Positions 21,840-24,815 of a stretch of DNA of 64,000 nucleotides are shown here, in pieces. The stretch's first letter is position 1, and each line of letters starts with the position of its first letter. The translations under genes and the position numbers were made by a program. A model generated the notes under the pieces. The model was given only the letters and a program-made list of their open reading frames with translations. It was not told where the DNA came from and ran no database searches. The stretch is from Acinetobacter sp. ASP199 (GTDB lineage: Bacteria > Pseudomonadota > Gammaproteobacteria > Pseudomonadales > Moraxellaceae), in contig NZ_CP062182.1 in assembly GCF_022700675.1 (NCBI RefSeq), positions 2,108,001 to 2,172,000 of the forward strand, written 5' to 3'.

Positions 21840-24815
21840 TTATTCTTCAGTTGTGTTGTCTGATGATTCCGAAGGCGCTGATGCATCAGTTTCTGCCTGT
21901 TCAATACTCACTGTTGCAGCATCAAGTTCTTCAACAAACTCATCTTCTTCAACAGCTTCAATTGACACTACACCAACAAGAAGCTCTTCATTACCCAAAC
22001 GAATCAGACGAACACCTTGTGCATTACGACCGGTTTGTGCTACTTCAGACGCACGTGTACGAACCAAAGTACCACCATCAGAAATCAACATTAACTCTTT
22101 GGTTTCATCAATAGCAACTGCACCCACCAACTGTCCATTACGTTCAGAGGTTTTAATGGCAATGACACCTTTACCACCACGTTTCTTGGTTGGGAAGTCA
22201 TCTACAGGAGTACGTTTACCATAACCATTTTCAGAAGCACAAAGGACTTCACCTGTTTCAGGCACAACGACTAACGACACAATACGGCTGACCATTGCTG
22301 AATCCGAACCATCTTCATCATCAGAATCAACGTCAGTATCGTCTTGATCTTCAAGCTGTGCTGCTGCACCGATGGTCACGCGCATACCGCGTACACCTTT
22401 GGCCGAACGACCCATTGAACGCACGTCAGTTTCTGCGAAGCGAATTGCCTTACCTTCGTTCGAGAACAACATAATTTGCTGTTCACCGTCAGTAATTGCC
22501 ACACCAATTAAGGTATCACCATCTACCAATTCAAGTGCACGTAAACCGTTTGAGCGAACATTCGAGAACTGTTCAAGCTCTACACGTTTAATCGTACCGT
22601 ATTCGGTTGCCATAAACACATAGAAGTTTTTACGAACAGCTTCTGCCTGCTGAGCAAAATCATTGATGATGTCATCATCAAGATCTGTAGCAGAAAGTTC
22701 TAGACCCAATTCTTTTAACTGAACACGGAGTGCATCAGAAATGTCATCTGCACCATCTTCAGATTCAGCCAGTGCAGCTTCTAGCGCAGCAAAATGACTG
22801 TTGATCACTTCATTACTTTGCAATTGTGCTGCATTTGCTTTTACAAATGCCTTGAAGTCTGCCAAACGTTCTTTGAATTTCTTCGGCGCATCAATCACTG
22901 GCAAGATTGCAGTAATTGTTTCGTTGTCATCAAGTGGCAACAAGTTGACCATTGGACGACCTTTGGCACCACGTGATGCTTGAGGCACTTCATACACTTT
23001 CAGACGATACACTTTACCCACGTTGGTAAAGCACAGTACTGTTGCATGGTTCGACGTGACCACCATATGCTGGATGTAATCGTCTTCTTTCATGCTGGTT
23101 GCTGATTTACCACGACCACCACGACGCTGTGCTGCATAGTCAGACAGTGGTTGAGTTTTCGCATAACCCGCTTTAGAAACCGTCAGTACCATTTGTTCTT
23201 CAGGAATCAAATCTTCACGCGAGAAGTCGATACGCGATTCAACGATATCGGTTTTACGTGCATCACCATATTGCTGAAGGATCAGTGCAAGCTCTTCACG
23301 AATCACGTTCATCAATAGGTTGAAGTCATTTAAGATAGCTGTGTATTCAGCAATCTGCGCAAGAATTTCAGAATATTCAGCTTGAAGTTTATCTTGCTCA
23401 AGACCAGTCAAGCGATGCAAACGCAGTTCCATGATCGCATTAACTTGCGTCGGTGATAAGCGATATACATCGCCATCAATACCGAATGGACGGCTAGGAT
23501 CTTCGCCTTCAATTTCGTCAGGACGTACAGAAACAGCACCTGCTTTTTCAAGTAATGCTGCTACACCGCCTGCTGCCCACTCGCCCGCTTGTAAACGCTC
23601 ACGCGCTTCTTGTGGGTTTGCAGATGTTTTGATGGTTTCAATAATCTGATCGATATTTGCAAGTGCAACTGTCAGACCTTCCAAGATATGACCACGTTCA
23701 CGCGCTTTTCGTAACTCAAACATGGTACGACGTGTCACGACTTCTTGACGGTGACGGATAAACGCCGCAATGATGTCTTTCAGGTTCATCAACTTCGGTT
23801 GGCCATTGTCCAGACAAACCATGTTGATGCTAAATGAGTTTTCTAACTGTGTATTCTGGAACAGGTTATTCACGATCACTTCAGCGTTTTCACCACGCTT
23901 CAGGTCAATCGCAATACGCATGCCTTCTTTATCTGACTCATCACGAAGTTCAGAGATCCCTTCGAGTTTTTTTTCTTTCACCAGCTCAGCGATACGCTCA
24001 ATGGTTCTCGCTTTGTTGACCTGATAAGGAATTTCAGTGAATACAATCGTGCTACGGCCAGATTTTGCATCTTCTTCGATGTGGTATTTACCACGGATAT
24101 GCAAACGGCCTTTACCGGTACGGTAAGCGTCTACAATGCCAGATTTACCGTAAATAATACCGCCTGTAGGGAAGTCTGGACCTGAGATATGTTCCATCAG
24201 CCCTTCAATGCTGATATTTGGATCATTGGCATAGGCCAGGCAGGCATTGATGACTTCTGTCATGTTATGCGGTGCCATATTGGTCGCCATACCTACGGCA
24301 ATACCAGCAACACCATTAATCAACAGGTTAGGAATACGCGTAGGCATTACTTGCGGAATGCGCTCAGAACCGTCGTAGTTGTCTTCCCATTCCACTGTAT
24401 CTTTTTCAAGATCAGCAAGGAGCTCATGGGTCAGCTTACGCATACGCACTTCGGTATAACGCATTGCCGCTGCACTATCACCATCGACAGAACCGAAGTT
24501 ACCCTGGCCATCTACCAACTGGTAACGCAAGCTAAATTCTTGTGCCATACGGACAATCGTTTCATAAACGGCAAAATCACCATGCGGGTGATATTTACCG
24601 ATCACGTCACCGACTACACGTGCAGATTTTTTATATGCTTTGTTATAGTCATTGCCTAATTCGTGCATTGCGAAAAGCACACGACGATGAACCGGTTTTA
24701 AACCATCTCGTACATCTGGCAATGCACGTGACACAATCACGCTCATTGCATAATCGAGATATGAGCTTTTAAGTTCATCCTCAATGGCAATCGGTCTAAT
24801 TTCCGATACGCTCAT
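21840..24815 (-). CDS. gyrA: DNA gyrase subunit A, with Phe at QRDR position 81
   Basis: GyrA breaks and rejoins DNA during negative supercoiling. It has 991 residues against 875 in E. coli. The catalytic Tyr is Tyr120 (AAAMRYTEVR) and the GyrA box QRRGGRGKS is present. In the quinolone-resistance region the sequence reads HPHGDFAVYETIV: residue 81 (E. coli Ser83) is Phe (codon TTT), where susceptible Acinetobacter have Ser; Glu85 is unchanged. The extra length comes from an acidic, helical insertion in the C-terminal beta-propeller at about residues 640-728 (22632-22900) and an Asp-rich loop near residue 835. AGGAG lies 7 bases before the ATG. The tail is rich in Glu, Ser and Ala, as usual for the family. 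Confidence 0.98.
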   Translation of the reverse strand: MSVSEIRPIAIEDELKSSYLDYAMSVIVSRALPDVRDGLKPVHRRVLFAMHELGNDYNKAYKKSARVVGDVIGKYHPHGDFAVYETIVRMAQEFSLRYQLVDGQGNFGSVDGDSAAAMRYTEVRMRKLTHELLADLEKDTVEWEDNYDGSERIPQVMPTRIPNLLINGVAGIAVGMATNMAPHNMTEVINACLAYANDPNISIEGLMEHISGPDFPTGGIIYGKSGIVDAYRTGKGRLHIRGKYHIEEDAKSGRSTIVFTEIPYQVNKARTIERIAELVKEKKLEGISELRDESDKEGMRIAIDLKRGENAEVIVNNLFQNTQLENSFSINMVCLDNGQPKLMNLKDIIAAFIRHRQEVVTRRTMFELRKARERGHILEGLTVALANIDQIIETIKTSANPQEARERLQAGEWAAGGVAALLEKAGAVSVRPDEIEGEDPSRPFGIDGDVYRLSPTQVNAIMELRLHRLTGLEQDKLQAEYSEILAQIAEYTAILNDFNLLMNVIREELALILQQYGDARKTDIVESRIDFSREDLIPEEQMVLTVSKAGYAKTQPLSDYAAQRRGGRGKSATSMKEDDYIQHMVVTSNHATVLCFTNVGKVYRLKVYEVPQASRGAKGRPMVNLLPLDDNETITAILPVIDAPKKFKERLADFKAFVKANAAQLQSNEVINSHFAALEAALAESEDGADDISDALRVQLKELGLELSATDLDDDIINDFAQQAEAVRKNFYVFMATEYGTIKRVELEQFSNVRSNGLRALELVDGDTLIGVAITDGEQQIMLFSNEGKAIRFAETDVRSMGRSAKGVRGMRVTIGAAAQLEDQDDTDVDSDDEDGSDSAMVSRIVSLVVVPETGEVLCASENGYGKRTPVDDFPTKKRGGKGVIAIKTSERNGQLVGAVAIDETKELMLISDGGTLVRTRASEVAQTGRNAQGVRLIRLGNEELLVGVVSIEAVEEDEFVEELDAATVSIEQAETDASAPSESSDNTTEE

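What the first reader, a model, noticed from the sequence alone, without database searches (positions are those of the whole stretch)
24571..24577. GyrA carries Phe at codon 81 (E. coli position 83), a classical quinolone-resistance site
The reverse strand reads HPHGDFAVYET; codon 81 is TTT. Susceptible Acinetobacter and E. coli have Ser here, and Ser-to-Leu or Ser-to-Phe changes at this position are a well-known cause of reduced fluoroquinolone susceptibility. Glu85 is unchanged. A single transition from TCT would suffice. This suggests the strain has been exposed to quinolones or belongs to a resistant lineage.
Basis: partly seen in the sequence, partly recalled or inferred. Interest (0 to 1): 0.75.

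Follow-up and report, generated by a model that had tools for sequence, protein, structure and literature searches.

The report
Quinolone-resistance mutation in DNA gyrase
This Acinetobacter, a close relative of A. schindleri, carries the textbook pair of changes in the two enzymes that fluoroquinolone antibiotics attack, so it is very probably resistant; the mechanism is well known and the finding is ordinary but real.

Summary
Confirmed. The gyrA gene (window 21840-24815, minus strand) has TTT (Phe) at codon 81 (24573-24575), the equivalent of E. coli GyrA Ser83; Glu85 is intact. The nearest relative found, A. schindleri, has TCT (Ser), one transition away. Of 80 related loci (the best 80 of 294), 68 have Ser81; in GyrA residues 65-104 only sites 81, 93, 99 and 101 vary (79 rows). 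This is the classical gyrA + parC double target mutation. In the 80 genomes ParC84 is changed in 4, all of them also changed at GyrA81, and in none alone. In A. baumannii the analogous S81L + S84L pair raises the ciprofloxacin MIC from 0.25 to 32 ug/ml (PMC6561030). The 3' two thirds of gyrA is a recombinant tract, but codon 81 lies outside it. Low novelty.

The parts
21840..24815 (-). gyrA, DNA gyrase subunit A, 991 aa, intact
   Evidence: ORF; PF00521 match over cut-off; the closest solved chains are DNA gyrase subunit A
24504..24623 (-). Quinolone-resistance-determining region, residues 65-104
   Evidence: Sequence; among 79 rows only residues 81, 93, 99 and 101 vary inside it. The limits 65-104 are those quoted in a passage of PMC11237425
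24573..24575 (-). Codon 81, TTT = Phe (E. coli GyrA position 83); A. schindleri has TCT = Ser
24561..24563 (-). Codon 85, GAA = Glu, the acidic partner site, unchanged
   Evidence: Glu in 78 and Asp in 2 of 80 loci
24456..24458 (-). Codon 120, TAT = catalytic Tyr (E. coli Tyr122, recalled), intact
21840..23816 (-). 3' two thirds of gyrA (gene nt 1000-2976): recombinant tract that groups with A. pecorum instead of A. schindleri; does not include codon 81

Best explanation
This is a target-site fluoroquinolone-resistance genotype in an A. schindleri-like Acinetobacter: GyrA S81F together with ParC S84L. Ser81 and Glu85 of GyrA (Ser84 and Glu88 of ParC) are the sites that hold the water-metal ion bridge by which quinolones contact the enzyme-DNA complex. 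Replacing the serine in both enzymes weakens that contact, so neither gyrase nor topoisomerase IV is poisoned at ordinary drug levels, while both enzymes stay functional. The two changes are separate single C-to-T transitions (TCT to TTT; TCA to TTA), most simply selected in sequence, gyrA first. Phe instead of Leu at GyrA81 fits the fact that the sister species spells Ser81 TCT, from which TTT (Phe) and TAT (Tyr) are one step away and TTA (Leu) is two. Shown: both codons, their state in the sister species, intact reading frames, repeated change at these sites in the genus. Inferred: the resistance phenotype, its level, the order of the steps and past quinolone exposure.
For: Codon 81 TTT; A. 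schindleri, HR7 and A. pecorum TCT. ParC84 TTA in the same genome, A. schindleri TCA. In codons 1-150 of gyrA, 7 codons differ from A. schindleri and 2 of them change the residue, S81F and D93E; site 93 varies in the genus (D 65, E 8, N 5, S 1 of 79). ParC differs from A. schindleri at 9 residues, of which 84 is the only one in codons 51-130. 12 of 80 loci are non-Ser at 81 (5 F, 3 Y, 2 T, 1 L, 1 I); 4 of 80 are non-Ser at ParC84 (3 L, 1 Y), all 4 among the gyrA-changed, 0 of the 68 with Ser81 (Fisher p 9e-5 on 77 rows, L036, L065 and L066 dropped). The tree needs at least 9 Ser/non-Ser changes at site 81 and 5 at ParC84. Seven of 113 protein backgrounds occur with two different residues at 81 and are otherwise identical. 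A. baumannii MICs: WT 0.25, GyrA S81L 2-4, ParC S84L alone 0.25, both 32 ug/ml (PMC6561030 Table 1, passage seen). Serine and acidic residue both anchor the bridge in E. coli gyrase (PMC9917921, abstract seen).
Against: No MIC, no reads, no second strain of this lineage compared. The MICs seen in print are for Leu81, not Phe81, and for A. baumannii. The gyrA-parC association is not significant once relatedness is removed (10 independent pairs, Thr rows counted as changed; parC goes the same way in 4-5, the opposite way in 0; median sign-test p 0.0625). D93E also differs, effect unknown. RND efflux was not examined.
Confidence: 0.93

Rival explanations
1. Neutral or lineage-fixed polymorphism: Phe81 is the normal residue of this species and has no bearing on drugs.
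For: No conspecific genome was compared: the best of 28 relatives has 94% GyrA identity. Two rows outside named Acinetobacter (L065, L066) have Thr at 81 with Asp at 85, so the site can differ by lineage.
Against: Site 81 is Ser in 68 of 80 loci and the QRDR is nearly frozen; the sister species is Ser; the corresponding ParC site is changed too, which neutrality does not predict.
Confidence: 0.04
2. The resistant gyrA segment was imported from another Acinetobacter by recombination, not made by mutation in place.
For: gyrA is mosaic: nt 1000-2976 groups with A. pecorum (support 0.997), while nt 1-1000 groups with A. schindleri, HR7 and L036 (support 1.0). L036, in that group, is itself changed at 81, to Leu.
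Against: The QRDR lies in the A. schindleri-like part: own-schindleri identity is 96.2% over nt 1-1000 and the next best of the 80 loci is 91.1%. The codon needs one transition only.
Confidence: 0.06
3. Assembly or base-calling error at codon 81.
For: Reads were not available.
Against: Single-base differences at the two corresponding resistance sites in two intact genes of a one-contig assembly; the same pair of residues recurs in three other genomes of the 80.
Confidence: 0.01

Closest known systems
A. baumannii GyrA S81L + ParC S84L
   Same: Same two sites in orthologous proteins, same two-step logic; the pair is described as common in A. baumannii clinical isolates (PMC6561030, passages seen)
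   Different: Phe instead of Leu at GyrA81; different species; MIC here unmeasured
Enterobacterial GyrA S83F (recalled; papers holding Ser83Phe with Salmonella or Klebsiella in the title stand in the listing)
   Same: Same structural position and the same Ser-to-Phe change
   Different: Different host; other genetic background
Other Acinetobacter with GyrA Phe81 and ParC Leu84 (L029 A. chengduensis, L043 A. sp. CFCC 10889, L045 A. rongchengensis)
   Same: Identical pair of residues
   Different: Separate origins on the tree (group F/L, 4 rows with own, 4 changes)

Membership tests
GyrA QRDR target-site fluoroquinolone resistance | Non-serine residue at the position of E. coli GyrA 83 | tested here: met
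   TTT, Phe81, 24573-24575
GyrA QRDR target-site fluoroquinolone resistance | Substitution derived relative to close relatives | tested here: met
   A. schindleri, HR7, A. pecorum all TCT; 68 of 80 loci Ser
GyrA QRDR target-site fluoroquinolone resistance | Gene intact, catalytic residue kept | tested here: met
   991-aa ORF, Tyr120 present
GyrA QRDR target-site fluoroquinolone resistance | Raised fluoroquinolone MIC caused by the allele | not testable with these tools
   No phenotype data
gyrA + parC double mutant (high-level type) | Second substitution at ParC Ser84 (E. coli Ser80) | tested here: met
   ParC84 TTA Leu; A. schindleri TCA Ser; the closest solved topoisomerase IV chain, 2xkj, has Ser there
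Additional GyrB/ParE QRDR changes | Change in the EGDSAGGSAKQ / PLKGK motifs (recalled) | tested here: inconclusive
   Both subunits keep EGDSAGGSAKQ; GyrB has PLKGK, ParE reads PIRGK; no relative's GyrB/ParE was compared
Plasmid-type quinolone protection (Qnr) | Pentapeptide-repeat protein | tested here: not met
   PF00805: 0 matches in the assembly; control rings in 9 of 14 genomes. Plasmids missing from this one-contig assembly would not be seen

The most novel reading that the evidence does not exclude
Across non-baumannii Acinetobacter, quinolone target mutations arise over and over, and the serine codon that a lineage uses biases which residue appears: TCT gives Phe or Tyr, TCA gives Leu, AGT gives Ile (GyrA81 codons in own plus 80 loci: TTT 6, TAT 3, TTA 1, ATT 1 beside TCT 43, TCA 12, AGT 7, TCC 4, and 4 others). 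These species would then be a large, little-charted reservoir of QRDR alleles. Against the codon part: of the 11 changed rows 6 have nearest kin with the fitting codon (own, L003, L005, L038, L045, L080), but L043 (TTT) has a TCA sister and L036 (TTA) has TCT kin, and L026, L029 and L055 are unclear. Not excluded either: ParC S84L came in with a short imported tract, since parC nt 150-900 is 89.9% like A. schindleri against 95.6% downstream, with no donor found.
Probability: 0.25. Interest if true: 0.4.

Novelty: already known. Interest (0 to 1): 0.22.

Why it matters
It marks an A. schindleri-like lineage as very probably fluoroquinolone resistant and shows the well-known gyrase/topoisomerase IV sites changing repeatedly outside A. 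baumannii. A screen for S81L alone would miss the Phe and Tyr alleles, which outnumber Leu in the rows examined here (80 loci: 5 F, 3 Y, 1 L; 120 proteins: 30 F, 31 Y, 7 L, a list ranked against a Phe81 query).

Tried and rejected
Whether the gyrA mutation was imported: sliding identity and segment trees show that the exchanged part of gyrA does not contain codon 81. Whether parC S84L was imported: nt 150-900 is less like A. schindleri than the rest, but no donor emerged and both segment trees keep own and A. schindleri together (0.908 and 0.999); left open. Acquired determinants: no pentapeptide match; the integron-integrase model gives only sub-cut-off matches in two ORFs, one of them the window's tyrosine recombinase at 29814-30749. 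The plasmid collection gave 7 records, none covering 80% of gyrA. Papers: Acinetobacter + gyrA + Ser81Phe gave 0; Acinetobacter + S81F + quinolone gave 1, titled on S. pneumoniae topoisomerase IV (listing only), and (20 of 1,239 listed) the only listed paper holding S81F is the same one. Absence from this open library does not mean unpublished. Searches were seen as listings only, apart from PMC9917921 (abstract) and PMC11237425 (passages). The 120-protein list was not used as a frequency, because ranking against a Phe81 query slightly favours Phe and Tyr.

Full report
What was checked. The reverse strand of window 21840-24815 encodes an intact 991-aa GyrA. Codon 81 is TTT (Phe) at 24573-24575 and codon 85 is GAA (Glu) at 24561-24563. 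The window lies in a one-contig assembly of 3,048,990 bases.

Organism. Among 80 named loci (the best 80 of 294 relatives) the closest gyrA is that of A. schindleri CIP 107287, 89.8% in nucleotides, then A. pecorum, 89.3%. The window aligns to A. schindleri at 91.6% over 53,674 of 64,000 bases, and a 19.9-kb stretch round parC at 89.8% over 17,888 of 19,901 bases. On a tree of gyrA nt 1-999 plus parC, resistance codons removed, own and A. schindleri are sisters with full support. So this is an A. schindleri-like lineage, perhaps a separate species; whole-genome identity was not computed. No second strain of the lineage was compared: the best of 28 relatives searched has 94% GyrA identity. The exact GyrA protein is listed on two contigs in the protein collection (P0001); what the second one is was not told.

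Ancestral state. Residue 81 in the 80 loci: Ser 68, Phe 5, Tyr 3, Thr 2, Leu 1, Ile 1. The two Thr rows are Alkanindiges and a Moraxellaceae bin. A. schindleri has TCT, so one C-to-T transition makes TTT. In codons 1-150 own and A. schindleri differ in 7 codons, of which 81 (S to F) and 93 (D to E) change the residue. Site 93 is variable in the genus (D 65, E 8, N 5, S 1 of 79), whereas between residues 65 and 104 the only variable sites are 81, 93, 99 and 101 (79 rows, L065 and L066 left out).

The second step. ParC of the same genome reads HPHGDLACYEA; codon 84 is TTA (Leu), against TCA (Ser) in A. schindleri. ParC differs from A. schindleri at 9 residues, and 84 is the only one in codons 51-130. 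The closest solved topoisomerase IV chain, 2xkj, has Ser at this place in the printed alignment. Among 78 ParC rows the residues 63-102 vary at site 84 only (rows L139, L201, L202 left out).

Pattern across the genus. ParC was read for all 80 genomes (28, 26 and 26). Ser at both sites: 68. GyrA81 changed only: 8. Both changed: 4. ParC84 changed only: 0. Leaving out L036 (a bin labelled Methylophaga whose best ParC is only 58% identical) and the two Thr rows, Fisher's exact p is 9e-5 on 77 rows. That test ignores relatedness. With phylogenetically independent pairs (Thr rows counted as changed) there are 10 pairs; ParC goes the same way in 4 or 5 and the opposite way in 0; median p 0.0625, not significant. 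The tree (80 rows: own plus 79, L036 left out) needs at least 9 changes between Ser and non-Ser at GyrA81, the two Thr rows not counted, and 5 at ParC84. The pattern agrees with the known order, gyrA first and parC second.

A larger protein sample. The best 120 of 8000 scored GyrA proteins have Ser 52, Tyr 31, Phe 30, Leu 7 at this site. Seven of 113 distinct backgrounds occur with two residues at 81 and are otherwise identical. A FastTree tree of these needs 19 Ser/non-Ser changes, 14 of them forced by well-supported branches. These numbers show recurrence, not prevalence: the list was ranked against a Phe81 query.

Mechanism. Quinolones contact gyrase and topoisomerase IV through a water-metal ion bridge held by a serine and an acidic residue; in E. 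coli gyrase both appear to act as anchors (PMC9917921, abstract seen). In A. baumannii, ciprofloxacin MICs are 0.25 for the wild type, 2-4 for GyrA S81L, 0.25 for ParC S84L alone and 32 ug/ml for the pair (PMC6561030, Table 1 in a passage). By analogy the genotype here predicts high-level resistance. That Phe acts like Leu is inferred from the recurrence of Phe and from Ser83Phe in enterobacteria (recalled).

Why Phe and not Leu. In the sister species Ser81 is TCT, from which Phe (TTT) and Tyr (TAT) are one base away. In the 80 loci plus own the derived codons are TTT 6, TAT 3, TTA 1, ATT 1, each one base from a serine codon used in the genus. Kin fit in six of eleven changed rows (own, L003, L005, L038, L045: TCT; L080: AGT). 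They do not in two: L043 (TTT) has a TCA sister, L036 (TTA) has TCT kin. Three are unclear (L026, L029, L055). In ParC, own (TTA from TCA) fits, while L045 (TTA) has a sister with TCT (L048). So codon geometry explains this lineage well but is not a firm rule here.

Recombination in gyrA. Identity to A. schindleri is 96.2% over gene nt 1-1000 and 85.3% over nt 1000-2976, whereas A. pecorum is 88.4% over the latter, and trees of the two parts disagree (own with A. schindleri, HR7 and L036, support 1.0; own with A. pecorum, support 0.997). Genes next to the 3' end of gyrA (window 16528-21781) are 93.7-97.8% identical to A. schindleri. The 3' part of gyrA has thus been exchanged, in own, in A. 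schindleri or in both. Codon 81 lies outside it, so the exchange does not explain the mutation. In parC, nt 150-900 is 89.9% and nt 900-2217 is 95.6% like A. schindleri; the differences are more clustered than in shuffles (p 0.0028), with the peak at codons 208-257, not at codon 84. No donor was found.

Other determinants. No pentapeptide match and no integron integrase above cut-off in the assembly. GyrB and ParE keep EGDSAGGSAKQ; GyrB has PLKGK and ParE PIRGK; no relative was compared for these. RND pumps and other resistance genes were not examined.

Verdict. It is a known mechanism at known sites in a less-studied lineage.

Noticed in passing
window 15452-16494: A 1043-bp insertion sequence whose two ends share their first 12 bases, with a transposase ORF at 15504-16385 on the minus strand (IS5-family, IS17-like by recall), ends 33 bp before the predicted start of a TolC / HlyD / two ABC-2 permease gene set (16528-21330; names by appearance). 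At this place A. schindleri has other sequence with a 278-aa ORF that blastn does not align to the window; a 79.6% identical element lies elsewhere in the fetched A. schindleri stretch. Effect on the genes unknown.
   Followed up: partly
window 21840-23816: The 3' two thirds of gyrA is a recombinant tract with A. pecorum-like affinity, ending at about the gene's end.
   Followed up: yes
L002 / L148 (own parC and its neighbourhood): parC nt 150-900 is less like A. schindleri (89.9%) than nt 900-2217 (95.6%); possible imported tract without known donor.
   Followed up: partly
L036: A bin labelled uncultured Methylophaga holds an Acinetobacter-type gyrA contig (with Leu81), while its best ParC is 58% identical to the window genome's: probably a mixed bin.
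   Followed up: no
P0089; plasmid hits H1, H3, H4: A GyrA 92% identical to this one is named Salmonella enterica, and three A. baumannii records of 3.7-4.1 Mb stand in the plasmid collection: probably mislabelled or contaminated records.
   Followed up: no
window 43560-44582: A 340-aa minus-strand ORF with low identity to A. schindleri (67% and 78% in the 500-base bins 43501-44000 and 44001-44500) inside otherwise similar sequence; looks like a locally variable gene.
   Followed up: no
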